Shown here piece after piece: positions 23,597-50,838 of a stretch of DNA of 64,000 bases. Source of the DNA: Baekduia soli. Lineage in GTDB: Bacteria; Actinomycetota; Thermoleophilia; Solirubrobacterales; Solirubrobacteraceae. How positions within the stretch are numbered: position 1 is the stretch's first letter; every line of letters starts with the position of its first letter. The stretch spans positions 4,216,001-4,280,000 of the forward strand of contig NZ_CP042430.1 of NCBI RefSeq assembly GCF_007970665.1. The letters run 5' to 3'. The position numbers and the translations under genes are program-made. The notes under the pieces were generated by a model. The model did no database searches and had not been told where the DNA came from. It saw only the letters and a program-made list of their open reading frames with translations.

Positions 23597-23678
23597 GGCG
23601 CCTAGCATGCCCGAGACGCCGGGGCCGCGGGACGCGTCGCGCACCGACTCTCCTTTGTGCCAGCCGGCTGCGGCCGGG

Positions 23679-23690
23679 CCGACCGGTCGG
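23679..23690. promoter_or_regulatory. Perfect palindrome, TetR operator candidate
   Basis: CCGACC-GGTCGG is a perfect 12-bp palindrome in the 169-nt divergent region between the E1alpha gene (minus) and the TetR gene (plus). CCGACCGGTCGG-type sequences are common recognition elements of TetR regulators of acyl-CoA and fatty-acid-like metabolism. Autoregulation and control of the E1/ligase operon by the adjacent TetR protein is the natural inference. Confidence 0.6.
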
Positions 23691-23765
23691 AAGGCCTCCG
23701 TGCCCCCGGGATCGTCGTGCCAGGCCCGCTGACCTACCGCACGGACGGTTATCATCCCGCCGGCC

Positions 23766-24350
23766 ATGGCCAGCGACACCGAGCAGCCGCTGCGACCCGA
23801 CATCGCCGCGGCCGCCACCCGGGTCTTCAGCGAGCTGGGCTACCACGGCGCGTCGATGCAGGACGTGGCCGACGCGGTCGGCATCCGCAAGGCGAGCCTG
23901 TACCACCATGTGCGCAAGAAGGAGGACCTCCTCTTCGCGATCCACGACGGGCTCATCGACGAGCTCATCGCCGACACGCTGGCCATCGTGTCCTCCTCCC
24001 AGTCGCCGTCGGACAAGCTGCGCGACATCCTGCGGTCCACCATGCGCTTCGTGGCCCGCAACCGCGAGGGCGTCACGGTCTTCCTGCACGAGCGCGCGGC
24101 GGTCAGCGGCGAGCGCTGGGACGCCATCGTGGCCAAGCGCAACTTCTACGAGAGCATGGTGCGCGGGATCATCGCCGACGGCGTCAGCTCGGGCCGCTTC
24201 ATCGACGTCTCCCCCGAGATCGCCGCGCGCGGGCTGCTCGCGATGGCCAACTGGGGCTACACGTGGTTCCGCTCCGACGGCCCGCTGAGCGCCGACGAGG
24301 TCGCCGACATCTTCGCGACGATCGCGCTGCGCGGCCTCGAGCCGCGCTGA
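23766..24350 (+). CDS. TetR/AcrR-family transcriptional regulator
   Basis: A 194-residue regulator with an N-terminal TetR DNA-binding domain: AAAATRVFSELGYHGASMQD, VADAVGIRKASLYHHVRKKE then DLLFAIHDGL. The C-terminal ligand domain contains KLRDILRSTMRFVARNREG and GLLAMANWGYTWFR, similar to regulators of acyl-CoA degradation (KstR2/FadR-like shape). It is divergent from the E1alpha-E1beta-CoA-ligase operon, and a perfect palindrome lies 76 nt upstream of its start. Its ligand is likely an acyl-CoA or acid of that pathway. Confidence 0.9.
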   Translation: MASDTEQPLRPDIAAAATRVFSELGYHGASMQDVADAVGIRKASLYHHVRKKEDLLFAIHDGLIDELIADTLAIVSSSQSPSDKLRDILRSTMRFVARNREGVTVFLHERAAVSGERWDAIVAKRNFYESMVRGIIADGVSSGRFIDVSPEIAARGLLAMANWGYTWFRSDGPLSADEVADIFATIALRGLEPR

Positions 24351-37027: not shown

Positions 37028-40000
37028 TCAGAGGGCCAGCTCGCCGTCGTGTCCGAGCGGACACACGAGGCTGGGACGCGGCGCGAGGAGGCTGGCGAGA
37101 TGGGCCCGGCGCACGCGCGCCTGACGCGCGGTGGTGCCCCGGGCGGACGTGATGACGAGCTGCGGGCGGTGCGCCGCGTCCTCGCGGGCGGCATAGGCTG
37201 CGGCCTGAGCGGCGGTCCCCGACAGGACGAAGCTGACGTCGCCGTCGCCGGCGACCCCGCGCGTGACGTCGAGGTCGATCCACGTGCCGGCGGCCGTCGG
37301 GCCGGCGCTGGCCAGCGACGGGAGCGTGAGGCCGGGCGCCGTGCTCCAGGAGAGCCCGCGCTCCGTCCAGCGCGAGGTGACCGGGAAGACGCTGCCGCCG
37401 TCGCTGGAGGCGCGGGCGACGTAGAGGCGCAGGCGCGCGGAGGCGGGGACGCCGCGCACGCCGGCGACGTGGAAGCGCAGGTAGGACCGCAGCGTCTCCG
37501 GCGCGCCCGTGACGCCCTGGCGGACGCCGAGCGTCCGGGCCGCGCCGGCGGTCGCGCGCGGCCGCAGCGAGGAGATCGAGCCGTCGGCCACGGGGGCGAA
37601 GCGGCGCGTCGCCCCTGCGGCGCCCGCGGCGGCGACGACGATGCGCCCGTCCAGCGTGGCGACGTCGGCGCCCGCGTCGTTGCGCGCGGTCAGGCGGACC
37701 TCGTAGGTGCCGGGCCGCGTGTAGGTGAAGCGGGGGTTGCGCTGCGTCGAGTCCACGGTGCCATCGCCCTGGAAGTCCCAGGCCCACGAGGTCGCGCCGA
37801 CGGAGCGGTCCGTGAAGGCGACGGTCAACGGCCCGGTGCCGCTGCGCGGCGCGGCATCGAGGTCGGCGGCCGGCGCCGCGGCCACGGTCGCGGGCGTGAT
37901 GACCAGCTCGGGCGCCCCGGCGCCCGCCGTCGCGTAGGCGGCGGTGTCGGCCGAGGTCGAGGCCAGGCCGAAGCTGACGCGGCCATCGCCGGTGACCGCA
38001 CGGGTCACATCGAGTTCGACCCAGCGCCGGCGCGTCGTCGCGCCCGCCGACGCCAGCGAGGCGCCGGTGATCGACGGCGCGCTCGTCCAGGAGAGCCCGG
38101 CGGGCGCCCAGCCCGTGCCCACGGCGAAGACGCTGCCGCCGTCGGTGGAGCCGTCGGTGGCCCGCAGCCGCAGGACGGCGCGCGCCGGCGCCGCGCCCAG
38201 CCCGCTGACGTCGAAGCTCACGAAGGCGCGGCGGCTGATCCCGGCCGGGCCGCGGCCCTGCCCGAGGCGCAGGACGGCGGTCGACGCCGCGCCGCGGGAG
38301 GCGACGGAGGCGTGGGCGACGGCCGTGAACGTCTGCCGCGAGCGCACGCCGCTCGTCGCGGTGGCGGGGCCGGCCACGGGGCCGGCGGGCCCGGGCAGCT
38401 CGGGGCCGGGTGCGGGCGCCGGAGCCGGCGCGGGCGCCGGGCCCGCGGCCGGGGGCGGCGTCGTCGTGCCGCTGCCGCCCGTGCCCGGGTCGCCGGTGCC
38501 GGTGCCCGGGTCGCCGGTGCCCGTGCCCGTGCCCGTGCCGCCGGCGACCACGTCGACGACGAGCGTGTTGGAGGCCGAGCCCTGCGGCGTCCTGGCGTTC
38601 TTGACGGTCAGCCCCACGGTGTAGTGGCCCGGCGCGGTGAAGCGGTGCGAGGGGTGCGCGGCGCCCGAGGTGCCACCGTCGCCGAACGTCCACGCGAAGC
38701 TCGTGGGCGGCCCGGTCCAGCTCGAGGCGAAGTCCACCGTGTCGCCGGCGGCGATCACCGTGGGCGTCAGCGCGGTGATCGTCGCGGTGGCCGCGACGGT
38801 GGCCGCCGGGGCGATCGGGGCCGGGCTGCCCGGCGCCTGGACGGCGGCGCCAGTGCCGAGCAGCACCCAGGAGGCGACAGACGGCACGCCGCCGGCGTCG
38901 ACGACCACGAGCATGTACCAGCCCGGGACCGCGCGGTAGGGGCTCGACGGGGTCGTGGCCGTGACCGTCGCGCCGGACTGCGTGAAGTCCAGCGGGACGT
39001 AGCGCTGGTCCATGTCGATGGCGTGCGTGACGCCTGACGGGCGCAGGAGCGCGACCTTGACGACCGTCGTGGTGGCGTCGCCGAGCGTGATCGGCAGCGC
39101 CGCGCCGTAGCCGCTCCGGGCGGGCGCGGAGGCGATGGCCGGCCGCGGGCCCTTGAAGAGGTAGGGCGGCCCGTAGACCTCGGCGGTGGTCTGCAGGCTC
39201 GTCGAGGTCGGCGCGTCCTCGGTGGCGCCGGCCGCGGTGACCTGGCCGCCGGCGGAGACCACGCGGCCGTCGGGCAGCGTCAGCGCCGTGGAGTGGTACA
39301 TGCGCGGATCGGTGAGCGGGGCGGCGTCGGTCCAGCGCTCGGTCGCCGGGTCCCAGATCTCGGAGGTCCGCACCGCATAGGCGGGGTTGTTGCCGACGGT
39401 CGTGCCCCCGACGGCGAGCACCGTGCCGTCCAACAGCAGCGGCGTGTTCATCCGCCGGCGCGCGTGGTTCATCGGCGCCGTGAGCCGCCACTGGGCCTTC
39501 GTGGGGTCGGCGACGTTGGTGTCGATGACCGCGGTGTGGTCCTGGGCGGGGTCGCCGCCGCCGGTGCGCAGGATCTTGCCCGGCGCGTACATGACCCCGG
39601 ACTCCGAGTAGGAGTCGGTGCTGAACGGGGCCGAGCGGCCCGCCGCCCACGTGCCCGACGCGCCCGCCGCGCCGGGCGTGAAGAACTGCGTCTGGTAGCG
39701 CGTGCCGGCCTCGAAGACGCTGCCGCCGGGCAGCTGGTACATGAAGGGGTACAGGTACTGCTGGGTGACGGGCTGCGCCGCGTCGGTCCACGTGTCGGTC
39801 GACGGGTCGTAGATCTCGGGCGTGGTCACCCGCACGTAGCCGCCGGTGCCGTCGGGCTGGTCGCCGGAGGACACCATGACGCGGCCGTCGGCCAGCACCG
39901 TCAGCGTCGGGTACCAGCGCGCGAAGTGCATGTCGCGCCCGCGCGTCCAGGTCTCGGTGACCGGGTCGAAGATCGCGGTGACCGGGATCCCGATGTGCGT

Positions 40001-40348
40001 GTCGACGTTCTGGCCGCCGACGACCAGGACGCGGCCGTCGGCCAGCGTGACCTGCGCGGCGCAGTGCAGGTCGCCGGCCGGGAACGGCACGGGCCGCATG
40101 TTCGCCCCCGTCGGGTCGGCGACCGGGTCCCACAGGTGCGGGTCGGCGTTGGCCTGCGAGGCCCAGACGAGCACCTCGCCCGTCTGGAGCAGGATCATGT
40201 GCTTGGCCTGCAGCGGCCACTGCAGCACGCTGCCCCAGCGCCCGACCTGGGCGGGTGTCGCGGGGTCGGCCGCCGCAAGGGCGGGCACGGCGACCGCGAG
40301 CGCCAGGCCGGCGATCAGGGCACCGATCCATCGACTCGTGACGGTCAT
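37028..40348 (-). CDS. Secreted copper-radical (galactose/glyoxal) oxidase-like protein with PKD and DNRLRE domains
   Basis: 1106 residues. The signal peptide is SRWIGALIAGLALAVAVPAL with cleavage near AAADP. Kelch propeller and DUF1929 domains (about 30-500) keep all copper-radical-oxidase residues: Cys in AGDLHCAAQVTLADGRV, Tyr in ARWYPTLTVLADG, Tyr-His in PRMYHSTALTLPDG, and His in VTHAIDMDQRYVPL. Then come PKD 1 (FAWTFGDGGTSG), a Gly-Thr/Pro-Ala linker, DNRLRE 1 (FVSFDVSGLGAAPARAVLRL), PKD 2 (WAWDFQGDGTVDSTQ) and DNRLRE 2 (SYLRFHVAGVRGVPASARL). It should oxidise alcohols or aldehydes outside the cell, producing H2O2. A 4-codon upstream frame (ATG 40359) overlaps the start codon. Confidence 0.88.
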   Translation of the reverse strand: MTVTSRWIGALIAGLALAVAVPALAAADPATPAQVGRWGSVLQWPLQAKHMILLQTGEVLVWASQANADPHLWDPVADPTGANMRPVPFPAGDLHCAAQVTLADGRVLVVGGQNVDTHIGIPVTAIFDPVTETWTRGRDMHFARWYPTLTVLADGRVMVSSGDQPDGTGGYVRVTTPEIYDPSTDTWTDAAQPVTQQYLYPFMYQLPGGSVFEAGTRYQTQFFTPGAAGASGTWAAGRSAPFSTDSYSESGVMYAPGKILRTGGGDPAQDHTAVIDTNVADPTKAQWRLTAPMNHARRRMNTPLLLDGTVLAVGGTTVGNNPAYAVRTSEIWDPATERWTDAAPLTDPRMYHSTALTLPDGRVVSAGGQVTAAGATEDAPTSTSLQTTAEVYGPPYLFKGPRPAIASAPARSGYGAALPITLGDATTTVVKVALLRPSGVTHAIDMDQRYVPLDFTQSGATVTATTPSSPYRAVPGWYMLVVVDAGGVPSVASWVLLGTGAAVQAPGSPAPIAPAATVAATATITALTPTVIAAGDTVDFASSWTGPPTSFAWTFGDGGTSGAAHPSHRFTAPGHYTVGLTVKNARTPQGSASNTLVVDVVAGGTGTGTGTGDPGTGTGDPGTGGSGTTTPPPAAGPAPAPAPAPAPGPELPGPAGPVAGPATATSGVRSRQTFTAVAHASVASRGAASTAVLRLGQGRGPAGISRRAFVSFDVSGLGAAPARAVLRLRATDGSTDGGSVFAVGTGWAPAGLSWTSAPSITGASLASAGATTRRRWVELDVTRAVTGDGRVSFGLASTSADTAAYATAGAGAPELVITPATVAAAPAADLDAAPRSGTGPLTVAFTDRSVGATSWAWDFQGDGTVDSTQRNPRFTYTRPGTYEVRLTARNDAGADVATLDGRIVVAAAGAAGATRRFAPVADGSISSLRPRATAGAARTLGVRQGVTGAPETLRSYLRFHVAGVRGVPASARLRLYVARASSDGGSVFPVTSRWTERGLSWSTAPGLTLPSLASAGPTAAGTWIDLDVTRGVAGDGDVSFVLSGTAAQAAAYAAREDAAHRPQLVITSARGTTARQARVRRAHLASLLAPRPSLVCPLGHDGELAL
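38481..38540 (-). repeat. Direct repeats coding the Gly-Thr linker
   Basis: A 21-bp unit occurs at 38481-38501 and again at 38502-38522, with one difference at the last base. It is followed by GTGCCC hexamer repeats. Read on the coding (minus) strand these give the GTGTGTGDPGT-type flexible linker between PKD 1 and the Pro-Ala stretch of the oxidase. Such a tract is prone to slippage and length variation. Confidence 0.75.
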
Positions 40349-40452: not shown

Positions 40453-41574
40453 TCAGGCGGCCATCGCGGGGTCGATCACGGCCTTGACGTCGCGCATCTC
40501 CTTCGAGGAGCGCATCGCGGCCGACAGGTGCTCGAGCGGGTAACGGCGGCCGAGCATCCGGTCCCAGTCGAAGCGGTCGCGGAACGCGCTGAGGAAGCGC
40601 ATGGCCTTCCAGTAGGCGTCGGTGTCGCCGCCCATCGAGCCCAGGACCTGCACCGCGCGCGTCGTGACCCGCGGGACGTTGATCGGCTGGGGCTCGCCGG
40701 TGATGGTGCCCACGACGACGTAGCGGCCCTTGGGGGCCATCATCTGGACGCCCTCGCCGGCGGCGCCGCGCGCGCCCGCGACCTCGAGCACGACGCTGGG
40801 CCCGCGCGAGCCCGTGATCCGCAGCACCTCGTCCAGCCGCGCCGGGGCGTCGGGGTACTCCTGGACGGAGATCGTGTGCGTGGCGCCCCACTCGCGGGCG
40901 AGCTCGAGGCGGTCGTCGGGCGCCCCGACGACGATGAGGTGGCGCGGCGAGTGCGTGCTGAGCATCGCGGTGGCGAACAGGCCGAGCGGGCCCGAGCCCT
41001 GCACGACGACGGAGTCCAGGTAGTCGACCGGCATCGCCTTCTCGATCGCCTTGATCACCGTGCGCAGCGCGCAGCTGCCCGCCGAGGCCCAGTCGCTCTG
41101 GACGTCGTCGGGCACGCGGATGCGCCCCGAGCGCGCCCACACGTACCCGTAGTCGGCGAAGCCGCCTGTGAAGTGGGGCGGCTTGGAGCAGTCCTCCAGG
41201 AAGCCCAGGCGCCGGTTCGTGCACAGCGTCGTCTCCCCCATGATCGTGCAGGAGTAGCAGCGCAGGCACGGCTCGTGGGTCCAGATGACGCGGTCGCCCT
41301 CGCGCAGCGGCTCGCCCACGGAGTCGAAGGCGGCGCCGTCGCCGAGCTTGGCGACGCGGCCGACCATCTCGTGGCCGAGGATGAGCGGGAGGTGGACGGG
41401 GATCACGCCCTCCAGCGCGCCCTCCCAGACGTGGACGTCGCTGCCGCACACCGTCGCGGTGTCGATCTCGACGACGATCGCGCCGGGCTCGGGCTCGGGG
41501 ACCTCGAACTCCTGAAGCGTGAAGTCGGCGTTGTACTCGGTCAGGACGGCGGCGCGGCCGGTCTGCTGGGCCAT
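40453..41574 (-). CDS. Zinc-dependent MDR alcohol dehydrogenase
   Basis: A 373-residue dehydrogenase. TATVCGSDVHVWEGALEG and LILGHEMVGRVAKLGDG form the catalytic zinc site. TLCTNRRLGFLED ends the structural zinc region, here EPCLRCYSCTIMGETTLC. VVVQGSGPLGLFATAML is the NAD(P) fold. Start ATG 41574 has GAGG 7 nt upstream; the TTG at 41580 is less likely. It lies 58 nt downstream of the esterase gene on the same strand. With the neighbouring monooxygenase and esterase it fits oxidation of a secondary or cyclic alcohol to a ketone, the entry step of a Baeyer-Villiger route. Confidence 0.88.
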   Translation of the reverse strand: MAQQTGRAAVLTEYNADFTLQEFEVPEPEPGAIVVEIDTATVCGSDVHVWEGALEGVIPVHLPLILGHEMVGRVAKLGDGAAFDSVGEPLREGDRVIWTHEPCLRCYSCTIMGETTLCTNRRLGFLEDCSKPPHFTGGFADYGYVWARSGRIRVPDDVQSDWASAGSCALRTVIKAIEKAMPVDYLDSVVVQGSGPLGLFATAMLSTHSPRHLIVVGAPDDRLELAREWGATHTISVQEYPDAPARLDEVLRITGSRGPSVVLEVAGARGAAGEGVQMMAPKGRYVVVGTITGEPQPINVPRVTTRAVQVLGSMGGDTDAYWKAMRFLSAFRDRFDWDRMLGRRYPLEHLSAAMRSSKEMRDVKAVIDPAMAA

Positions 41575-41632
41575 GGTCAACCTCGATGGATCGTGATCGT
41601 GGGGACGGCGGGGACGGGACGGGCCCCGAGGG

Positions 41633-42595
41633 TCATGCGAGCCCGAGCCGCGGGCGCACCCAGGCGGCCAGGCGCGCGATCGCGTCGTCGGCCTCGGGCG
41701 CGGCGCCCGCGAGGAGCTGGAAGACGTGCTGCATGTCGGCGTAGACGTCGAGGCGGACCTCGACGCCGGCCTCCTGGGCGCGGCGCGCCAGGGTGCGGGC
41801 GTCGGCGACGAAGTTCTCGCAGCCGCCGACCTGGATGTACATGGGCGGGAAGCCGTGCAGGTCGGCGTAGATCGGCGCCGCCAGCGGGTCCCGCGGGTCG
41901 CCGGCGGGACCGAGGAAGACCTCCGCGGAGGAGATCACGACGTCGCGCGTGCCGATGAGGTCGCGGTCGTTGGTCTCGTGGATCGGGTCCAGCGCCTCGA
42001 GCTCGATCCACGGCGACAGCGGCAGGATCGCCGCCGGCATAGGCAGGCCGAGCTCGCGGGCGCGCAGCAGGGGCGAGAGGCACAGGGCGCCCCCGGCGGA
42101 GTCGCCGGTCAGCGCGATCCGGCCGGCCGCGATCGCCTGGTCCTCCAGCAGCCAGCGGTAGACGGCGACGAGGTCCTCGACCTGCGCGGGGTGCACGTGC
42201 TCGGGCGCCAGGCGGTAGTCGACCAGCAGCGCGCGGCAGCCGACCGCCCGGGCCAGGTGGGCGTAGAGCTTGCGGTGGCTGTAGATCGAGCCGCACGCGT
42301 AGCCGCCGCCGTGGCTGCACACCAGCACGCGGTCCAGGGCGGCGCCCTCGGGCACGGCCCACAGGGCGGGCACCCCGCCGGCGTCGACGTGGACGTAGTC
42401 GACGCGCTCGGGGTCGCGCCCGAAGTCGCCCCAGCGCGAGAACCCGTCGCGCAGCTGCTCGATCGTGGTGGCCGGGTCGGCCCCCAGCGCGCTGATGCCG
42501 CGGTAGAAGTCGTCGAACTCGCGCACCGCGGGCGACGCGGCGTCCACGGCCGGGACGACGGACTCCGGCGAGGCCGGCTGGACCGGCGGGGACAT
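41633..42595 (-). CDS. Alpha/beta hydrolase, hormone-sensitive-lipase family esterase
   Basis: A 320-residue esterase. The HGGG oxyanion motif is in LVCSHGGGYACGSIYSHRK and the nucleophile in IALTGDSAGGALCLSPLLRA. LLVDYRLAPEHVHPAQVEDL is the class-IV signature. The acid/base residues lie in VGGCENFVADARTLARRA and YADMQHVFQLLAG. AGGAGG lies upstream of ATG 42595. It hydrolyses short-chain esters or lactones. Divergent from the TetR gene, with an inverted repeat between them. It is well placed to open the ester or lactone made by the Baeyer-Villiger enzyme encoded at 45793. Confidence 0.88.
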   Translation of the reverse strand: MSPPVQPASPESVVPAVDAASPAVREFDDFYRGISALGADPATTIEQLRDGFSRWGDFGRDPERVDYVHVDAGGVPALWAVPEGAALDRVLVCSHGGGYACGSIYSHRKLYAHLARAVGCRALLVDYRLAPEHVHPAQVEDLVAVYRWLLEDQAIAAGRIALTGDSAGGALCLSPLLRARELGLPMPAAILPLSPWIELEALDPIHETNDRDLIGTRDVVISSAEVFLGPAGDPRDPLAAPIYADLHGFPPMYIQVGGCENFVADARTLARRAQEAGVEVRLDVYADMQHVFQLLAGAAPEADDAIARLAAWVRPRLGLA

Positions 42596-42622
42596 GGGGA
42601 CGGCTCCTCCTGGAATCGAACA

Positions 42623-42638
42623 GACCGGACAGTCGGTC
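42623..42638. promoter_or_regulatory. Inverted repeat, TetR operator candidate
   Basis: GACCG-GACAGT-CGGTC is a 5+6+5 inverted repeat in the 66-nt divergent region between the esterase gene (minus) and the TetR gene (plus). ACCGxxxxxxCGGT arms are typical of TetR operators. Its position would let bound repressor block both promoters. Confidence 0.5.
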
Positions 42639-42661
42639 GAGCGGTATCGTACAGGCGGTTG

Positions 42662-43324
42662 ATGGCCGCGGCCCGCAAGACACCGTCCCGGACCGCCGTC
42701 GCGCCGGCCGCGCAGAACGGCGCCGGTGCGCGCCCGCGCTTCGACGAGCGGCGCCTGGCCGTCGTCGACGCCGCCGCCCACGTCTTCGCCGTACGCGGCT
42801 ACGAGCGCACGACGATCGACGACATCGTGCAGGCCACGGGCCTGACACGCGGCGGCCTGTACCACTACATCTCGGGAAAGAAGGACCTCCTCGTCGCCAG
42901 CCACGAGCGCTACCTGCGCCCGCTGCTGGAGACCTGTGAGGAGATCGGCGCCCGCGGCGACGCGCCCGGCGAGGAGCTCCGGGCGCTCGTCCGGGAGATG
43001 ATGCGCCTGCACGCGGCGTTTCCCGACCACGTCGCCGTCTTCCTCAACGAGTGGCGCTCGATCCACGAGGAGCCCGAGTGGGCGCAGCTGCGCCGCGATC
43101 GCCGTGCGTTCGAGCGCATCGTGCACCGCGTCCTGGAGCGCGGCAGCGCCGAGGGCGACTTCGTCGTCGACGACGTCCGGCTCACGCTCCTCGCGCTCAT
43201 GGGCATGGTCAACTACTCGTACCAGTGGCTCGATCCCAAGGGCCGCGTCGATGTCGACGACATCGCCGACCGCTTCTGCGACATCTTCCTCCTCGGCATC
43301 CAGTCCGGGCGCGACGGCCGATGA
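42662..43324 (+). CDS. TetR/AcrR-family transcriptional regulator
   Basis: A 220-residue regulator. After a basic 30-residue lead the HTH domain reads RLAVVDAAAHVFAVRGYERT, TIDDIVQATGLTRGGLYHYI then SGKKDLLVASHERYL. The ligand domain resembles TetR_C33-type (KstR2-like) regulators: LRALVREMMRLHAAFPDHVA, FLNEWRSIHEEPEW. ATG 42662 is preferred; a TTG lies just upstream. It is divergent from the esterase/alcohol dehydrogenase pair and is followed after 36 nt by the CoA ligase, SDR and monooxygenase genes. Control of the whole 40.4-47.7 kb module is inferred. Confidence 0.9.
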   Translation: MAAARKTPSRTAVAPAAQNGAGARPRFDERRLAVVDAAAHVFAVRGYERTTIDDIVQATGLTRGGLYHYISGKKDLLVASHERYLRPLLETCEEIGARGDAPGEELRALVREMMRLHAAFPDHVAVFLNEWRSIHEEPEWAQLRRDRRAFERIVHRVLERGSAEGDFVVDDVRLTLLALMGMVNYSYQWLDPKGRVDVDDIADRFCDIFLLGIQSGRDGR

Positions 43325-43360
43325 GCCCTTGCCCCCGCAACCACGCGAAAGGTGGGACCC

Positions 43361-44938
43361 ATGATCGACGTCGTCGGTGACCGCACCCTCAACGACCTGC
43401 TCGACGAGCGCGTCGCACTCGGGCCGGACCATCAGCTGCTCGTCTTCGAGGACGCCGAGGGCGCCGTGAGCGAGCTGACCTACGGCGGCTTCCAGGACCT
43501 GGTCCTGCGCGCCGCCCGCGGCCTGCAGGAGCTCGGCGTCGGCCACGGCGACCGCGTCGCGGTCCAGCTGCGCAACTCGCCCGAGATCCTGGTGATCTGG
43601 TTCGCGCTGGCGCGGCTGGGGGCGATCTTCGCGCCGTCCAACGTCGCCAACACCACGCCCGAGCTCGAGCACATCCTGCGCAAGGCGCGCGTCTCGCTGC
43701 TCATCGTCGAGCCCGACTACCGGGCGATCGCCGAGGGCGCGATCGCGGCCGCCGGCGGCGACGTCACGCTCGTGATCGCGCGCGGCCCCGGCGGCGACGC
43801 CGTCACGTTCTCCGACCTGCTGGAGCGCGAGCCGCTCACCGACGCGCCCGACGTCGGCGCCATGGACGTCTGCGAGCTCATCTTCACCTCGGGCACCACG
43901 TCCAAGCCCAAGGCCGTGATGCTGACCCACGCCCACTGCGTGCGCTCGGGCGAGGACGCCGTGCGCTGCATCGGGCTGCACGACGGCGACCGCTGCATGA
44001 CGTCGCTGCCGCTTTTTCACTGCAACGCCCAGGCGATGACGGCGCTGGCGGCGATGACGGTCTACGGCACGATCATCCTGCTCGAGGTCTTCTCCGCGAC
44101 GAAGTACTGGTCGCAGCTGCGTCGCCACGGCGCCACGGAGACCGCGTTGGTGGCCATGCAGCTGCGCACGCTCAACGCCCAGCCCGTCGACCCCGACGAG
44201 CGCGACCACCGGCTGCACCGCGTCTTCTACTCGCTCAACGTGCCCGACGAGGAGCGCCTGTCCTTCGAGGACCGCTTCGGCGTGACGCTCATCAACGGCT
44301 ACGGCCAGAGCGAGGCCATGGTCATGATCACGTCGGCCCCACTGGTCGGCGACCGCCGCTGGCCCTCGATCGGCCTGCCCATCGCCGGGCGCAACGTCCA
44401 CATCCTCGACGAGGAGGGCAACCCCGTCCCCCGGGGCGAGGTCGGCGAGATCTGCGTCGAGGGCACGCCGGGGCGCGACGTGTTCCTGGGCTACTTCGAC
44501 GACCCCGACGCCACCGCCCAGACGTTCCGCGACGGCCTGCTGCACACCGGCGACAACGCGATGGTCGACGACAAGGGCTTCTTCTACTTCTTCGACCGCA
44601 AGAAGGACATGATCAAGCGGGCGGGCGAGAACGTCTCGGCCATGGAGGTCGAGTCGGCCCTCATCGCCCACCCCGAGGTCGCCACCGCGGCGGTCATCGG
44701 CGTGCCCGACCCGATCCGCGACGAGGAGGTCGTCGCCGTCGTCGTGGCCGAGCACGCCGGCGCGGTGACCGCCGAGGAGCTGCGCGAGCACTGCGCGCAG
44801 CGCCTGGCCCGCTTCAAGGTCCCCACCACGATCCAGTTCGTCGACGAGCTTCCGCTGACCTCGGTCGGCAAGGTCCGCAAGGACGCCCTCCGCAAGGAGT
44901 GGACCGATGCCGCGCAGGCGCGCGCCACCACGTCCTGA
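43361..44938 (+). CDS. Acyl-CoA synthetase, carnitine-CoA-ligase-like
   Basis: A 525-residue adenylate-forming enzyme. ELIFTSGTTSKPKAVMLTHA is the P-loop motif, LINGYGQSEAMVMITSAPL is A5, and GLLHTGDNAMVDDKGFFYFF with DRKKDMIKRAGENVSAMEVE are A7-A8. The catalytic Lys lies in LPLTSVGKVRKDALRKEW. It resembles CaiC-type crotonobetaine/carnitine-CoA ligases but no carnitine genes are near. ATG 43361 follows a GGTGGGA motif. It starts the plus-strand operon with SDR and flavin monooxygenase genes and would activate the acid released by that pathway. Confidence 0.9.
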   Translation: MIDVVGDRTLNDLLDERVALGPDHQLLVFEDAEGAVSELTYGGFQDLVLRAARGLQELGVGHGDRVAVQLRNSPEILVIWFALARLGAIFAPSNVANTTPELEHILRKARVSLLIVEPDYRAIAEGAIAAAGGDVTLVIARGPGGDAVTFSDLLEREPLTDAPDVGAMDVCELIFTSGTTSKPKAVMLTHAHCVRSGEDAVRCIGLHDGDRCMTSLPLFHCNAQAMTALAAMTVYGTIILLEVFSATKYWSQLRRHGATETALVAMQLRTLNAQPVDPDERDHRLHRVFYSLNVPDEERLSFEDRFGVTLINGYGQSEAMVMITSAPLVGDRRWPSIGLPIAGRNVHILDEEGNPVPRGEVGEICVEGTPGRDVFLGYFDDPDATAQTFRDGLLHTGDNAMVDDKGFFYFFDRKKDMIKRAGENVSAMEVESALIAHPEVATAAVIGVPDPIRDEEVVAVVVAEHAGAVTAEELREHCAQRLARFKVPTTIQFVDELPLTSVGKVRKDALRKEWTDAAQARATTS

Positions 44939-44964
44939 CCCGCAACCACCACGAGAGAGCCCAC

Positions 44965-45783
44965 ATGCCCGAGACCCCTGACCACATCATCGACCTGAGC
45001 GGCGACGTCGCGCTCGTGACCGGCGCCGGCTCCGGCATCGCGCGGGCCACCGCGCTCATGCTCGGCGCTGCGGGCGCGGCAGTGCTGGCCGCCGACATCG
45101 CCGGCGACGCCGCCGAGGCCACGGCCGAGGCGATCACGGCGGCCGGCGGCACGGCGTCCGCGGTGAGCTGCGACGTCACCGACGACGCCGGCGTCGAGGC
45201 GATGGTCGCCGCGGCGCGCACCCTGGGCAGCCTGGGCATCGTCGTCAACGCCGCGGGCATCGCCATCCGCAAGGGCCTGCTGGACACGACGCGCGAGGAC
45301 TGGGACAAGGTCATCGCCACCAACCTGACGGGCTACTTCAACGTGCTGCGCGCGACGGTCCCCGACCTGGAGGCCTCCGGCAACGGGCGCATCGTGCAGA
45401 TCGCCTCGGTCTCGGCCCACCTGGGCTACGGCTACCCGTCCTACACGGCGTCCAAGGGCGGCGTGCTGGCCATGAGCCGCCAGCTCGCGGCCGAGCTCGC
45501 GCCGAAGGGCATCCGCATCAACTCGGTCAGCCCCGGCGTCATCGAGACGGGGATCAACCGCGGCACGCTGGGCACGGAGGCGATCCGCGGCGCCACGATC
45601 GGGATCACGCCCCTGGGCCGCCTCGGCCAGCCCGAGGACATCGCGCGGACGGTCCTGTACCTCGTCAGCCCGCTGGGCGCGTTCGTGACGGGGACCGACC
45701 TCGTCACCGACGGGGGGATGATCAGCACGATCCACTGGGGCGCGGCCGGCGACCTCCTGCAGACCTTCGACCAGCGCCGCTGA
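44965..45783 (+). CDS. Short-chain dehydrogenase/reductase
   Basis: A 272-residue SDR. VALVTGAGSGIARATALML is the dinucleotide motif; its last Gly is Ala-preceded (TGxxxGIA instead of GIG), a minor variant. LGIVVNAAGIAIRKGLLD, the Ser in RIVQIASVSAHLGYG, the YxxxK in YPSYTASKGGVLAMSRQL and the SPGVIETG motif follow. GAGAGAG lies 5 nt before ATG 44965. Located between CoA ligase and monooxygenase genes, it likely oxidises an alcohol to the ketone used by the monooxygenase, or a hydroxy-acid after ester cleavage. Confidence 0.9.
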   Translation: MPETPDHIIDLSGDVALVTGAGSGIARATALMLGAAGAAVLAADIAGDAAEATAEAITAAGGTASAVSCDVTDDAGVEAMVAAARTLGSLGIVVNAAGIAIRKGLLDTTREDWDKVIATNLTGYFNVLRATVPDLEASGNGRIVQIASVSAHLGYGYPSYTASKGGVLAMSRQLAAELAPKGIRINSVSPGVIETGINRGTLGTEAIRGATIGITPLGRLGQPEDIARTVLYLVSPLGAFVTGTDLVTDGGMISTIHWGAAGDLLQTFDQRR

Positions 45784-45792
45784 GAGGCCGCC

Positions 45793-47745
45793 ATGACGAT
45801 CACCCCGAAGCACCTGAGCGACGAGGAGCTGGCGCAGGCGCTGGCCATCGCCAACGTCCCCACCCTGCTGCCGCTGCTCGTCCAGCTCACGGGCGAGGAG
45901 CGCTGGATCGAGGAGCCCTACCTGCCCCGGCGCAACAAGGGTCTGGACGACAACAACGACGGCGGCCTGCCCGAGGAGCTGCAGGCCGAGATCCGCGCGG
46001 CCGGCCTGGAGGCCATCCGGGCGTGGCGCGACGGGGCGCCGGTCGCGCTGCCCGACCCCGGTCCCGAGCTCATGGTGCGCATGCTCAGCGTGGCGATGGG
46101 CGAGGAGGTCGGCGAGGAGTACGGGCCGATGCTGGCGGCCGAGCTCGCCGCCGTCGACGCGCCGGCCACGACCGCGCCGGTGGCCGGCGTGCCCGAGGGC
46201 TTCCACGCGCTCATCGTCGGCGCGGGCGTCTCGGGCATCGCCGCGGCCATCCGCCTGCGCGACGCGGGCATCCCGTTCACGATCGTCGAGCAGCACGAGG
46301 CGGTCGGGGGCACGTGGCTGGAGAACCGCTACCCGGGCTGTGGGGTCGACACCCCCAGCGCGCTGTACTCGTTCTCCTTCGCGCCGCACGACTGGAGCAA
46401 GTACTTCGCCCTGCGCGACGAGCTGTACGCCTACCTGGAGCAGATCGTCGCCGACACCGGCCTGGACGAGGAGATCCGCTTCCAGACCGAGGTCACCGGC
46501 GCGCGCTACGACGAGGACGCCCAGCGCTGGGACGTCGAGCTGCGCGGCCCCGGCGGCACCGCCGAGACGCTGACGGCCGACCTCGTGATCAGCGCGGTCG
46601 GCGCGTTCCGGCGCCCGAAGATGCCCACGATCCCGGGTCTGGAGGACTTCGCCGGCGAGCTCGTGCACACCGCGCGCTGGCCCGACGACCTCGACCTGAC
46701 CGGCAGGCGGGTGGCGGTCATCGGCAACGGCGCCAGCGCGATGCAGCTCGTGCCCGCGATCGCCGGGGTGGCCGCGGCGGTCACGATCTTCCAGCGCTCG
46801 CCGCAGTGGGCGGCGCCGTTCGAGCTCTTCCACGCCGAAGTGCCCGAGCCGCTGCGCGAGCTCTCCCAGAGCGTGCCGCTGTACCGCGCCTGGTACCGGC
46901 TGCGGGCGGGCTGGACGTTCAACGACCGCATCCACCAGACGCTTCAGAAGGATCCCGACTGGCCGCACCCCGAGCGCTCGGTCAACGAGATCAACGACGG
47001 CCACCGCAGGTTCTTCACGCGGTACATCGAGTCCAAGCTGGCCGGCCGCCCCGACCTCGTCGAGAAGGTCACCCCGACCTACCCGCCCTACGGCAAGCGG
47101 ATCCTGCTCGACAACGGCTGGTACGACAGCCTGCTGCGCGACGACGTGGAGCTGGTCACCGACCCGATCGCCTCGGTCGCGACCGACCGGGTGATCACCG
47201 CCACCGGCGCCGAGCACGAGGTCGACGTGATCGTCGCGGCCACCGGGTTCGACGTGGTGCGCTTCCTGGCGCCGATGGACATCCGCGGCCGTGGCGGCGT
47301 GAGCCTGCGCGAGGTGTGGGACGACGACGACGCGCGGGCCTACCTGGGGTCCTTCGTCCCGGGCTTCCCCAACTTCTACATGATCTACGGGCCGAACATC
47401 GCGGGCGGCCACGGCGGCAGCCTGATCGGCTCCGCCGAACACCAGCTCGACTACCTGATCGACCTGCTCGGCCGGCTGTTCGCCCAGGGCCAGGTGGTGG
47501 CCGAGGTGCGCCCCGAGCCCTACGAGCGCCACAACCGGCGCGTCGACGAGGCCCACGAGCGCATGGTCTGGACGCACCCGGGCATGGACACCTACTACCG
47601 CAACGGCCACGGCCGGGTCGTGGTCACCACGCCGTTCCGCGTCATCGACTTCTGGGGCATGACGCGCTCGGCCGACCTGGACGACTTCGTCACCGAGCCG
47701 CCGCGCGAGGGCGCCACGGCGGGCGCGGGGCGGCGCGCGGCCTGA
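45793..47745 (+). CDS. Flavin-containing Baeyer-Villiger monooxygenase
   Basis: A 650-residue class B flavoprotein monooxygenase. FHALIVGAGVSGIAAAIRLR is the FAD motif (about residue 137) and GGTWLENRYPGCGVDTPSAL the following block. The Baeyer-Villiger fingerprint FxGxxxHxxxW appears as FAGELVHTARWPDD. GRRVAVIGNGASAMQLVPAI is the NADPH fold, and FYMIYGPNIAGGHGGSLIGS follows. An extra N-terminal region of about 130 residues is present, as in the long BVMO subgroup (for example steroid or hydroxyacetophenone types). GAGAGG precedes ATG. It inserts oxygen next to a ketone, making an ester or lactone, using NADPH and O2. Confidence 0.92.
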   Translation: MTITPKHLSDEELAQALAIANVPTLLPLLVQLTGEERWIEEPYLPRRNKGLDDNNDGGLPEELQAEIRAAGLEAIRAWRDGAPVALPDPGPELMVRMLSVAMGEEVGEEYGPMLAAELAAVDAPATTAPVAGVPEGFHALIVGAGVSGIAAAIRLRDAGIPFTIVEQHEAVGGTWLENRYPGCGVDTPSALYSFSFAPHDWSKYFALRDELYAYLEQIVADTGLDEEIRFQTEVTGARYDEDAQRWDVELRGPGGTAETLTADLVISAVGAFRRPKMPTIPGLEDFAGELVHTARWPDDLDLTGRRVAVIGNGASAMQLVPAIAGVAAAVTIFQRSPQWAAPFELFHAEVPEPLRELSQSVPLYRAWYRLRAGWTFNDRIHQTLQKDPDWPHPERSVNEINDGHRRFFTRYIESKLAGRPDLVEKVTPTYPPYGKRILLDNGWYDSLLRDDVELVTDPIASVATDRVITATGAEHEVDVIVAATGFDVVRFLAPMDIRGRGGVSLREVWDDDDARAYLGSFVPGFPNFYMIYGPNIAGGHGGSLIGSAEHQLDYLIDLLGRLFAQGQVVAEVRPEPYERHNRRVDEAHERMVWTHPGMDTYYRNGHGRVVVTTPFRVIDFWGMTRSADLDDFVTEPPREGATAGAGRRAA

Positions 47746-47811: not shown

Positions 47812-48014
47812 CTACGCGCCGCTGGTCGCGCGGAAGCGCGTGGCCTTGTGGGTGCCGTCGCAGAACGGCTTGCGGGCCGAGCGCCCGCAGCGGCACAGGG
47901 CGACCGTGCGCTGGTGGACGGAGATCTCGCGCCCGTCCTGGTCGGTCAGCGTGAAGGGCCGCGGACGAGCAGCGGCCCGTCGCGGTAGGGCGTGATGCGC
48001 ACCTCGCCGCTCAC
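47812..48014 (-). pseudogene. CDGSH iron-sulfur protein, frameshifted (1-nt deletion)
   Basis: About 67 residues after repair. GTG 48014 starts VSGEVRITPYRDGPLLVRGP, then the frame changes to FTLTDQDGREISVHQ and the [2Fe-2S] motif LCRCGRSARKPFCDGTHKAT (C-x-C...C-D-G-x-H). The span is 203 nt (3n+2); one extra base in GGG at 47956-47958 gives the usual RGPFTL junction. CDGSH proteins are small redox or cluster-transfer proteins. The start overlaps the stop of the haem-oxygenase-like gene (GTGA). It is the last of four minus-strand genes with a redox theme. Confidence 0.82.
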
Positions 48015-49036
48015 GACGCGGCCGCCGCCGTCGCGGGGGCGTGCAGGAGCGAGCTGCGGCCCTCGTCCCAGGCGCCGAGCAGGTGGCGCGCCCAGCGGTC
48101 CTCGATCTCCACGAGCGCGCGGGCCCCGAACAGCACGTCGGCGGTCAGCGCCGGCTCCTGGCGGACGAGGCCGCCGGCGAGGTCGACCGCGGCGATGTTC
48201 TCGTGCACCGCGTCGGCGGTGACGTGCTCGTCGAAGAACGCGGTGGCGCGCGGGTCGTCGACGCCGAGGCGGCGCAGGGCGGTGGCGTAGCGGCGGTTGG
48301 GCACCGACGAGGTCATCTCGAACAGCGCGAGGTGCCCGACGATCGCCCCGCGCCGGCGCCGGTGCAGGCCGAACAGGGACATGAGGTTGACCGTCGCCAG
48401 GGTGATCCCGGGCAGGCGGTCCAGGTGGGCGCCGTAGGTCGCGTCGAGCTCCAGCGCGCGCAGCACGTCGGCGAACAGCTCGGCGTGCATCCGCGCCGGG
48501 TCGCCACCGCCGTACTCGTCGGTCTGGACCTCGACGAGCGCCGCCTTCGGCGCGCCGGCCAGGCGCGGCACCGCCCACGAGTGCGGGTCGGCCTCCTTGA
48601 GCTGGTAGGCCGACCGGTGGACGAGGAACTCCCGCAGCTGGTCGAGGTCGCCGTCGACCTCCAGGTGGCGGGCCAGCGAGGGCCCGTCGTCGGCGGCGAT
48701 GATCGCCCGCAGGGCGAGGTCCATCGTCTCGGGGCCGGCGGAGGGCGGGACCCAGCCCGACAGGGCGTCGTGCAGCCCGGCCTCGAAGACCGCCTCGAGG
48801 CGCGCGCGCAGCGCGAGCAGCCCCGGGTCCCATTCCCAGCGCTCGTCGACGCCGTCCAGGCCGCGGTAGTGCAGCTCGTAGAGGCAGTAGAGCGTGAGGT
48901 GCAGGTCGTCGTCGGCCAGCGGGTCGGCGGTCGCGTCGACGTCGACGTCGACGTCGACCAGCGTGCCCGGTGCATGCAGCAGCACGGCGAGCACGGCTTC
49001 CGACAGTGGGCCACGCGGTGCGGGGGCGACGGGCAT
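48011..49036 (-). CDS. Iron-containing redox enzyme (haem-oxygenase-like diiron fold)
   Basis: A 341-residue, mainly helical protein. LYCLYELHYRGLDGVDERWE, REFLVHRSAYQLKEADPHSW, VQTDEYGGGDPARMHAELF and FFDEHVTADAVHENIAAVDL supply the His/Glu ligands seen in the haem-oxygenase-like diiron family. Members act as oxygen-dependent oxidases or desaturases. It is upstream of the CDGSH gene (GTGA overlap) and 9 nt downstream of the glutamate-cysteine-ligase-family gene. This conserved grouping suggests a redox-cofactor or stress role, but the substrate is not known. Confidence 0.78.
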   Translation of the reverse strand: MPVAPAPRGPLSEAVLAVLLHAPGTLVDVDVDVDATADPLADDDLHLTLYCLYELHYRGLDGVDERWEWDPGLLALRARLEAVFEAGLHDALSGWVPPSAGPETMDLALRAIIAADDGPSLARHLEVDGDLDQLREFLVHRSAYQLKEADPHSWAVPRLAGAPKAALVEVQTDEYGGGDPARMHAELFADVLRALELDATYGAHLDRLPGITLATVNLMSLFGLHRRRRGAIVGHLALFEMTSSVPNRRYATALRRLGVDDPRATAFFDEHVTADAVHENIAAVDLAGGLVRQEPALTADVLFGARALVEIEDRWARHLLGAWDEGRSSLLHAPATAAAAS

Positions 49037-49045
49037 GGTTCCCGG

Positions 49046-50164
49046 CTACCCGAGGAAGCGGTCGGCCAGCCACGCGGCGACCGCTCGCGCGCCACCCTCG
49101 GCGGCGACCTCGCGGATCAGGGCGTCGCGCGGATGCAGCACGAGGTCGCGGGCGGACTGCAGCTCGGCGGCGCACCCGAGCCGCGCGGCGGCCGGGGCGA
49201 GGTCGTCGAGGAGGTCGCCGAGCACGTCGGCGGTGTCGCGCACCTCGCCGGTGCGCACGTCGGACCAGCGGCCGCGGACGCCGTGGCGGCACGCCGACCA
49301 CCGGTTCTCGGCGATCCGCCAGCTCTCGGCGGGCTCGGGCAGCGTGCCGGCGGCGGCCCGGTCGGCGAGCGTCGCCACGAGCGCGTGGACGACCGCGGCC
49401 AGCGCGGAGGCGTCGGCCGTGGTGGCCTGGGCGTCGGGGACGCGGACCTCGACGGTGCCGTAGCGCGGATGCAGGCGCAGCTCCCACCACCAGCCGTCGG
49501 TCGCCGAGAAGGTGCCGGTCGCCGCGCCCCAGCGCCACGCGGCCTCCAGCGCGTCCCAGGTCGGCATCACCGGGGGCACGCCCTGACGCGGCAGCAGGTC
49601 GCAGATCTTGGGGCGCATGGACGCCAGGCCGCTGTCGGCCCCCTCGTGGAACGGCGCGCCCGCGCCGAGCGCCGCCAGCGCGGGCAGGTGCTCGCGCAGC
49701 GCGTTGTAGACGCCGAGGGCGACGTCGGCGCCCGCGACGGCCACGTGGACGTGCAGCCCGAAGGCGAGCTGGCGACGCGCCGCCCACGCGTACTCCGAGG
49801 CGATGGCCTCGTAGCGCGGGCCGCGGGTCAGCGCGCCCTCGCCGGCGGCGAACGGGTGCACGCCGCCGGACGCGAGGACCCCGATCCCGCCGGCGGCGTC
49901 CGCCAGCGCCCCGCGCGCCTCGCGCAGGGCCGCCGCGGCCGCGGGCACCGTCTGCACCGGCGGGGTCACCGCCTCGAGCTGGGCCGCGGGCATCTCGGCC
50001 TGGAAGCGCCGGTCGCCCTGCAGCCGGCGCAGGACCGCGTCGGCCCGCGGCAGCAGGTCCCACGTCCCGGGACGCAGGAGCATGTACTCCTCCTCCATCC
50101 CGACCGTGAGCGGCTCGGCATGGTCGAACGCGGCGCGGGGCCGCGCCGCCACCCCCGTGCTCAC
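49046..50164 (-). CDS. Carboxylate-amine ligase, YbdK/glutamate-cysteine ligase 2 family
   Basis: A 372-residue member of the GCS2 family. LTVGMEEEYMLLRPGTWDLL (metal/ATP-binding Glu cluster), EMPAAQLEAVTPPVQTV, LAFGLHVHVAVAGADVALGV and WWWELRLHPRYGTVEVRVPD are signature blocks. Family members make gamma-glutamyl bonds with weak glutamate-cysteine ligase activity. GTG 50164 overlaps the stop of the Mn-catalase gene (GTGA). Its company with catalase-, iron- and CDGSH-type genes fits a thiol or oxidative-stress role. Confidence 0.85.
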   Translation of the reverse strand: MSTGVAARPRAAFDHAEPLTVGMEEEYMLLRPGTWDLLPRADAVLRRLQGDRRFQAEMPAAQLEAVTPPVQTVPAAAAALREARGALADAAGGIGVLASGGVHPFAAGEGALTRGPRYEAIASEYAWAARRQLAFGLHVHVAVAGADVALGVYNALREHLPALAALGAGAPFHEGADSGLASMRPKICDLLPRQGVPPVMPTWDALEAAWRWGAATGTFSATDGWWWELRLHPRYGTVEVRVPDAQATTADASALAAVVHALVATLADRAAAGTLPEPAESWRIAENRWSACRHGVRGRWSDVRTGEVRDTADVLGDLLDDLAPAAARLGCAAELQSARDLVLHPRDALIREVAAEGGARAVAAWLADRFLG

Positions 50165-50838
50165 GCCTCGGGCTCCTCCGGATCCACGCCGCCGGCGAGC
50201 GGCACCGAGCCGTCGAGGACCTCCTGCAGGTGGCGCTGCCGGACGGCTGGCGCCCCGTCGGCCAGAGCGGCGACCCGGGGCAGGCCGGCGCGCTGGTTGA
50301 GCTTGGCCCCCACGAGCCAGTGGCCGGCCTCGCCCGCCTCGGCCATCGTGAGGAACTCGAAGCCGTCCACCGCCTCGTCACGGGTCTCGCGCGCGGCGGC
50401 GAGGACGCCGGCCTGGGGCGGCAGGTCGTTGGGCAGCGGGCCGTCCCGGACGACCAGGTCCTCGCCGGTCTCGGGATGCGGGCCGTCGAAGACCGCGGAC
50501 ACCTCGTGGTGGTCGGTGTGCGCACCGGTCTCCAGGAAGAGGTCGTGCGTGAGGTCATCGACCAGGTCGCCGGAGCTGGACACGTACCCCCCGGTCGCGT
50601 CGGGCGCCTGGGCGTCGACCTGGGCCGGGTCGGTCAGCATCGTGTTGATCGCCCCCGCGACGAGCTCGATGTGGCCGAGCTCCTCCGCGGCGATGTTCGC
50701 CACGAGGTCGAAGAACGGCCGTGCGGCCGGGCGTCCCCGGAAGGTGAACGACTGGAACGTGTAGTTCATGAACGCCGACAGCTCGCCAGCGGAGGGCGGC
50801 GGCAGGGCGACGCCGAGTCGGTCGATACGGGTGATCAT
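50161..50838 (-). CDS. Manganese catalase family protein lacking the second half of the metal site
   Basis: A 225-residue protein; normal Mn catalases have about 280-300. The first metal half-site is intact: Glu19 in AGELSAFMNYTFQSF, and Glu53 and His56 in ANIAAEELGHIELV. GGYVSSSGDLVDDLTHDLF then aligns well, but after LETGA the sequence jumps to the C-terminal DGPHPETGEDLVVRDG block. The segment of about 60-70 residues carrying the second Glu and His ligands is missing in frame. Canonical catalase activity is therefore doubtful; a different or lost function is inferred. First gene of the four-gene redox operon, divergent from the methyltransferase gene. Confidence 0.75.
   Translation of the reverse strand: MITRIDRLGVALPPPSAGELSAFMNYTFQSFTFRGRPAARPFFDLVANIAAEELGHIELVAGAINTMLTDPAQVDAQAPDATGGYVSSSGDLVDDLTHDLFLETGAHTDHHEVSAVFDGPHPETGEDLVVRDGPLPNDLPPQAGVLAAARETRDEAVDGFEFLTMAEAGEAGHWLVGAKLNQRAGLPRVAALADGAPAVRQRHLQEVLDGSVPLAGGVDPEEPEA

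What the first reader, a model, noticed from the sequence alone, without database searches (positions are those of the whole stretch)
40453..47745. Self-contained Baeyer-Villiger degradation module with its own TetR switch
Within 7.3 kb lie an alcohol dehydrogenase, an HSL esterase, a TetR regulator, a CoA ligase, an SDR and a BVMO with the FxGxxxHxxxW fingerprint. The order alcohol to ketone (ADH/SDR), ketone to ester/lactone (BVMO), ester to acid plus alcohol (esterase) and acid to CoA ester (ligase) gives a complete route. The divergent layout around an inverted repeat (42623-42638) suggests one repressor governs both arms. The 130-residue N-terminal extension of the BVMO points to bulky or aromatic ketones.
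Basis: partly seen in the sequence, partly recalled or inferred. Interest (0 to 1): 0.6.

Follow-up and report, generated by a model that had tools for sequence, protein, structure and literature searches.

The report
TetR-flanked ketone-degradation (Baeyer-Villiger) gene cluster
A soil-type actinobacterium carries six neighbouring genes that look able to turn an alcohol or ketone into a CoA-activated acid, under a repressor whose DNA site resembles that of known CoA-ester sensors; it is a plausible but fairly ordinary breakdown cluster of a known kind.

Summary
The six genes exist and look catalytically intact: Zn-ADH, HSL esterase (left arm); TetR, CoA ligase, SDR, type I BVMO (right arm). 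The arms diverge from a 66-bp gap holding GACCG-N6-CGGTC. That repeat alone is no better than chance (P about 0.49). However, it matches (11/14) the published operator ACCGACCGGTCGGT of PaaR, a TetR repressor released by a CoA ester. Matches at least that good occur upstream of 9 of 15 other TetR_C_24 genes, against 0.5 expected. TetR_C_24 genes here also cluster with CoA ligases (8/14 within 4 kb; 1.3 expected). So one CoA-ester-sensing repressor controlling both arms is the best, still inferred, reading. The BVMO's N-terminal extension is an all-helical domain shared by the relatives compared; by itself it says nothing about substrate. The BVMO is an in-genome duplicate (73%, 100% support) of one lying in a HyuA-HyuB-BVMO-SDR-ligase operon. 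No relative has the six-gene set: ligase recurs in 40 of 91 loci, this esterase family in one. It is therefore a local assembly rather than a conserved module. BVMO+hydrolase clusters (acpAB, bpf) are known; mymA and PaaR are analogues. New member of a known kind.

The parts
40453..41574 (-). Zinc-dependent medium-chain alcohol dehydrogenase; left arm, second gene
   Evidence: Pfam PF08240/PF00107; a 61%-identical (partial HSP) homologue lies divergent to an N-extended BVMO in Pseudonocardia sp. KRD291, L103; own paralogue 57% at G000:C1:769456
41633..42595 (-). HSL-family (family IV) serine esterase; left arm, first gene
   Evidence: PF07859; EstD11 esterase 2.5e-69; HGGGY/GDSAGG/MQH present; RBS AGGAGGAG at 42604-42611
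42596..42661 (.). 66-bp divergent intergenic region shared by both arms
   Evidence: gene starts refined
42620..42638 (.). Probable TetR operator: two overlapping 14-mers, ACAGACCGGACAGT (42620-42633) and ACCGGACAGTCGGT (42624-42637), each 11/14 to the PaaR operator consensus; includes GACCG-N6-CGGTC (42623-42638)
42662..43324 (+). TetR-family repressor with TetR_C_24 ligand domain
   Evidence: PF00440 + PF17932; one of 14 TetR_C_24 genes in the genome
43361..44938 (+). AMP-forming acyl-CoA ligase (CaiC/feruloyl-CoA synthetase-like, substrate unknown)
   Evidence: PF00501/PF13193; NF005947 484.6 bits, below cut-off 651; 8weu/8wev 2e-69
44965..45783 (+). Short-chain dehydrogenase/reductase (the longer ORF from GTG 44899 overlaps the ligase; ATG 44965 preferred)
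   Evidence: PF13561
45793..47745 (+). Type I Baeyer-Villiger monooxygenase with N-terminal extension
45793..46188 (+). BVMO N-terminal extension (residues 1-132), predicted all-helical, conserved across the subfamily
46648..46680 (+). BVMO fingerprint FAGELVHTARW (FxGxxxHxxxW), residues 286-296
   Evidence: sequence; G288, H292, W296 invariant in 52 aligned proteins

Best explanation
The 7.3 kb is a divergently transcribed ketone-catabolism cluster under one local repressor. ADH and/or SDR oxidise a secondary alcohol to a ketone; the FAD/NADPH BVMO inserts oxygen to give an ester or lactone; the HSL esterase hydrolyses it; the ligase makes the CoA ester of the acid released, which leaves for beta-oxidation encoded elsewhere. 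The TetR_C_24 protein sits on a PaaR-type operator in the 66-bp gap, represses both the esterase-ADH and the TetR-ligase-SDR-BVMO transcripts, and is released by the acyl-CoA that the pathway's own ligase makes (product induction). Shown here: gene families, intact catalytic motifs, layout, operator match, recurrence of the operator at other TetR_C_24 genes, TetR_C_24/ligase clustering, origin of the BVMO by duplication. Inferred: substrate, reaction order, co-regulation, identity of the inducer.
For: Families and catalytic motifs. BVMO model pLDDT 90.7, pTM 0.91; Foldseek top hits CHMO/STMO/PAMO/OTEMO over the roughly 530-residue core. Tight right-arm spacing suggests one operon. CoA ligases recur beside this BVMO subfamily: 40 of 91 loci within about 10 kb, many adjacent and co-directional; R. 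opacus plasmid has ligase-BVMO-SDR with a nearby alpha/beta hydrolase; ADH homologue divergent to an N-extended BVMO in Pseudonocardia (L103). Operator: 11/14 to the mutationally tested PaaR operator (PMC2770484), found in 1.1-1.6% of comparable 66-bp sequences; 9 of 15 other TetR_C_24 upstream regions reach 11/14 against 0.53 expected. TetR_C_24 genes lie within 4 kb of ligases in 8 of 14 cases, 1.3 expected, P=0.0006. PaaR proteins respond to phenylacetyl-CoA, not free phenylacetate (PMC9493321).
Against: No relative has the six-gene set, so conserved linkage does not support a joint pathway; the closest ligases (55-60%) sit in an unrelated E1/E2-PrpD-AtuA type cluster; the esterase family is a neighbour of this BVMO subfamily in only 1 of 91 loci. 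No canonical promoter found. The window operator has a degenerate centre. Whether characterised PaaR proteins carry the TetR_C_24 domain was not tested. Substrate unknown.
Confidence: 0.6

Rival explanations
1. Two functionally separate units that happen to abut: an esterase-ADH pair and a TetR-ligase-SDR-BVMO operon. The TetR controls only the right arm, or both, but the enzymes act on different substrates.
For: Esterase and ADH are absent from nearly all relatives' BVMO loci (EST 1, Zn-ADH 2 of 91); no strong orthologues of EST, ADH or SDR in 120 related genomes, so the parts have different histories.
Against: The operator lies between both start codons within 66 bp, so binding would probably affect both promoters; BVMO+hydrolase pairs are a recurrent biochemical unit in characterised clusters (acpAB, bpfCD); ADH-BVMO adjacency recurs in L103.
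Confidence: 0.25
2. An anabolic or lipid-modifying cluster analogous to the mycobacterial mymA operon (BVMO, LipR esterase, ligase FadD13) rather than a growth-substrate catabolic route.
For: Overlapping enzyme content: mymA locus Rv3083-Rv3089 contains monooxygenase MymA, esterase LipR and acyl-CoA synthetase FadD13 (PMC10272862).
Against: TetR_C_24 with a PaaR-type operator next to a CoA ligase points to an acyl-CoA-induced catabolic unit; mymA is activated by VirS; closest BVMO relatives sit among ECH, hydantoinase, CaiB and ligase genes.
Confidence: 0.1
3. Biosynthetic/tailoring role (natural product) for the BVMO.
For: Best NCBIfam hit of the BVMO is PtlE-type pentalenolactone D synthase (152.7 bits).
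Against: The hit is far below that model's cut-off (1100 bits); no biosynthetic core genes were seen among the neighbours examined; CoA ligase, SDR and TetR context.
Confidence: 0.05

Closest known systems
acpAB of Rhodococcus rhodochrous GD02 (BVMO + esterase for acetophenone; PMC9618137)
   Same: BVMO then esterase logic, actinobacterial, transcriptionally induced by its ketone
   Different: AcpA's closest characterised homologue is phenylacetone monooxygenase; acpAB is a two-gene cluster; no TetR, ligase or ADH described there; here BVMO and esterase are on opposite arms
4-hydroxyacetophenone (hap) pathway of Pseudomonas fluorescens ACB / HAPMO
   Same: Type I BVMO with an N-terminal extension (reported for HAPMO in PMC10028610)
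   Different: HAPMO sequence could not be obtained, so kinship is not measured; hap operon content is known to me only from general knowledge
mymA operon of Mycobacterium tuberculosis (Rv3083-Rv3089)
   Same: Monooxygenase/BVMO, LipR esterase, acyl-CoA synthetase FadD13 (PMC10272862); SDR and ADH too, from my own knowledge
   Different: Activated by VirS, not a divergent TetR layout; role assigned to mycolic acid/envelope
bpf cluster of Sphingobium yanoikuyae DN12 (PMC12724174)
   Same: BVMO (BpfC) plus alpha/beta hydrolase (BpfD) cleave a ketone via an ester, shown biochemically
   Different: BpfC is 402 aa without the extension; upstream step is BpfAB, not an ADH
PaaR (TetR) of Burkholderia cenocepacia / Thermus thermophilus
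   Same: Operator consensus ACCGACCGGTCGGT (B. cenocepacia); repressor; CoA-ester effector; regulates a CoA-ligase-containing pathway
   Different: Regulates phenylacetate genes; protein-level kinship to the window TetR not tested

Membership tests
Type I Baeyer-Villiger monooxygenase | Two Rossmann motifs and FxGxxxHxxxW fingerprint | tested here: met
   GAGVSG, GNGASA, FAGELVHTARW; invariant G288/H292/W296 in 52 aligned proteins
Type I Baeyer-Villiger monooxygenase | Active-site Arg and Asp, fold of CHMO/PAMO | tested here: met
   D186 and R436 invariant and aligned with TmCHMO/STMO; Foldseek E about 1e-40
HAPMO-like BVMO (N-terminal extension) | Conserved N-terminal extension of about 130 residues | tested here: met
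   Extension in relatives across Actinomycetota, Pseudomonadota, Myxococcota and Gemmatimonadota; helical, pLDDT mostly above 90
HAPMO-like BVMO (N-terminal extension) | Clusters with HAPMO in a tree and oxidises aryl ketones | not tested
   HAPMO sequence not available in the held collections; activity needs an assay
mymA-type operon | One co-directional operon with a VirS (AraC-type) activator | tested here: not met
   Divergent arms with TetR
PaaR-type TetR regulation | ACCGACCGGTCGGT-like operator in the controlled promoter | tested here: met
   11/14 in the 66-bp gap; 1.1-1.6% by chance; also at 9 of 15 other TetR_C_24 genes
PaaR-type TetR regulation | Release from DNA by an acyl-CoA | not testable with these tools
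   Needs EMSA/ITC
BVMO-esterase catabolic pair (acpAB/bpfCD type) | Esterase encoded next to the BVMO in one transcription unit | tested here: not met
   Esterase lies on the opposite arm, 3.2 kb from the BVMO
BVMO-esterase catabolic pair (acpAB/bpfCD type) | Hydrolase from a catalytically intact ester-hydrolase family in the cluster | tested here: met
   HSL family IV, triad motifs intact

The most novel reading that the evidence does not exclude
In Thermoleophilia an N-extended BVMO works as a rule with an ATP-dependent hydantoinase-type pair (HyuA/HyuB, nearest named family caprolactamase) that opens or activates the BVMO product or ketone; the window cluster is a duplicate in which that pair was replaced by a serine esterase. 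This would mean an undescribed ATP-driven lactone-opening (or ketone carboxylation) branch of Baeyer-Villiger catabolism, with a PaaR-operator network of TetR_C_24 switches tying such units together.
Probability: 0.12. Interest if true: 0.6.

Novelty: new member of a known kind. Interest (0 to 1): 0.3.

Why it matters
It gives a compact, testable ketone-degradation cluster from a poorly studied actinobacterial lineage. Its regulation can be predicted: a PaaR-like operator and a CoA-ester inducer made by the cluster's own ligase. The wider pattern, 14 TetR_C_24 regulators clustering with CoA ligases and sharing an operator, would let one assign regulons and inducers across a genome full of uncharacterised catabolic clusters.

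Tried and rejected
Inverted repeat judged by itself: rejected as evidence (P=0.49) until tested against an outside consensus. Conservation of the six-gene module: looked for in 120 related genomes and 91 BVMO-subfamily loci, not found. Direct comparison with the HAPMO sequence: not possible, sequence not held; no PDB chain aligned over the extension. N-terminal domain as a SnoaL-like domain as in JsFMO (PMC10028610): the prediction is all-helical, so the comparison was dropped. Natural-product role from the PtlE hit: far below cut-off. Promoter/terminator scan: nothing found, uninformative for a 75% GC actinobacterium.

Full report
WHAT IS THERE. The window lies in a 5.21 Mb single-contig genome (G000:C1:4216001-4280000), 75% GC; its nearest named relatives by BVMO are Solirubrobacterales/Conexibacter. 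Six genes in two divergent arms were confirmed by Pfam and NCBIfam. Left arm, minus strand: esterase 41633-42595, then ADH 40453-41574. Right arm, plus strand: TetR 42662-43324, ligase 43361-44938, SDR 44965-45783, BVMO 45793-47745. Start sites were refined from the sequence; the esterase ATG has AGGAGGAG 8 nt upstream. Catalytic motifs of all five enzymes are intact, as read from the translations.

THE BVMO. It matches cyclohexanone, steroid and phenylacetone monooxygenases over residues about 127-588. The AlphaFold model is confident (pLDDT 90.7, pTM 0.91) and places the core on CHMO/STMO/PAMO/OTEMO. The first 130 residues form a helical domain that none of these structures covers. The same extension is conserved in the relatives compared from several phyla (A16, N21, P23, T33, G34, W38, P45, R47, G58, L59 nearly invariant), so it is a subfamily trait. 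A published comparison says that HAPMO has an N-terminal extension important for structural integrity (PMC10028610). It does not by itself predict bulky or aromatic substrates.

ORIGIN. The genome has three N-extended BVMOs. A tree of 86 proteins puts the window copy as sister of the copy at 1.33 Mb (73% identity, SH-aLRT 100), with the Solirubrobacterales MAG copy (L048) and Conexibacter (L049) outside. The sister copy sits in HyuA-HyuB-BVMO-SDR-ligase-ECH-ligase-Fe-ADH-TetR_C_24 (L039), and HyuA/B also neighbour the third copy (L041), L042, L043 and L049. The window copy thus probably left that context by duplication and gained new neighbours.

CONSERVATION OF THE MODULE. Strict searches in 120 relatives found good homologues of the ligase in six (42-61%, in other contexts), of the esterase in one (41%), and of ADH and SDR in none; the ADH has one own-genome paralogue at 57%. 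Ligase orthologues lie in an SDR-ligase-TetR-E1alpha-E1beta-lipoyl-E2-PrpD-AtuA-biotin carboxylase cluster. Among 91 loci of the BVMO subfamily a CoA ligase is found in 40, an SDR in 27, a Zn-ADH in 2 and this esterase family in 1 (loci differ in length, and ligase and SDR families are large, so these are associations and not orthology). The BVMO-ligase partnership is recurrent; the six-gene set is unique to this genome in what was searched.

THE SWITCH. GACCG-N6-CGGTC at 42623-42638 is real but not significant alone. A literature search with ACCGACCGGTCGGT, the motif suggested by other TetR upstream regions, returned the PaaR operator of Burkholderia cenocepacia, shown by mutation to be needed for repression (PMC2770484). 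PaaR is released by phenylacetyl-CoA and not by phenylacetate (PMC9493321). The 66-bp gap holds two overlapping 11/14 matches; such a match is found in 1.1% of 66-bp pieces of other intergenic DNA and 1.6% of shuffles. Of 15 other TetR_C_24 upstream regions (own and related genomes) nine reach at least 11/14, against 0.53 expected in length-matched DNA (none of 3000 resamplings reached nine). Caveat: a few of these regions had been inspected by eye before the consensus was chosen, and related genomes are not fully independent; the literature consensus itself is external. TetR_C_24 genes (14) lie within 4 kb of AMP-forming ligases (63 matches) in 8 cases, 1.3 expected under circular shifts, P=0.0006. 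This supports, but does not prove, acyl-CoA-responsive control of both arms.

MECHANISM AND LIMITS. The best reading is alcohol to ketone (ADH/SDR), ketone to ester or lactone (BVMO), hydrolysis (esterase), acid to acyl-CoA (ligase), with acyl-CoA release of TetR. Each step follows from family function; the substrate and the linkage of steps are inferred. No acyl-CoA dehydrogenase, hydratase or transporter belongs to the module, so 'self-contained' is overstated.

KNOWN OR NEW. Characterised parallels are acpAB (PMC9618137), bpfCD (PMC12724174), the BVMO-esterase route on long alkanes in Thalassolituus (PMC6304351), a BVMO next to a TetR gene in progesterone degradation (PMC12239570) and, in gene content, the mymA operon (PMC10272862). 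The window cluster is a new member of this known kind. More unusual, but untested, are the HyuA/HyuB-BVMO association and the shared operator across TetR_C_24 genes.

Noticed in passing
L039:7284-19972 (G000:C1:1325283-1337971); also L041, L042, L043, L049: HyuA/HyuB (hydantoinase/oxoprolinase family, nearest named family caprolactamase) lie directly beside N-extended BVMOs in Thermoleophilia, sometimes with a ligase, SDR and TetR_C_24; rare elsewhere in the subfamily.
   Followed up: partly
whole genome G000: 36 Hydantoinase_A matches (about 33 genes) and 63 AMP-ligase matches in 5.2 Mb: a strongly expanded hydantoinase and CoA-ligase repertoire.
   Followed up: no
window 23766-24350 with site at 23678-23691: A second TetR_C_24 regulator with a near-perfect PaaR-type palindrome GCCGACCGGTCGGA upstream, next to E1 alpha/beta dehydrogenase, CaiB, epimerase and ligase genes.
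   Followed up: partly
L128-L131 (own genome 2.39 Mb and relatives): Conserved cluster SDR-ligase-TetR_C_24-E1alpha-E1beta-lipoyl-E2-MmgE/PrpD-AtuA-biotin carboxylase; upstream of E1 alpha a variant palindrome CCTACCGTGCGGTAGG is identical in L128 and L131.
   Followed up: partly
window 37028-40348 (-): 1106-aa secreted-looking protein: GlxA/galactose-oxidase-like kelch propeller plus PKD and CBM96/DNRLRE domains, directly downstream of the ADH.
   Followed up: no
window 48011-50838 (-): Three-gene set: heme-oxygenase-like iron redox enzyme (PF14518), GCS2 glutamate-cysteine ligase, Mn-catalase-like protein.
   Followed up: no
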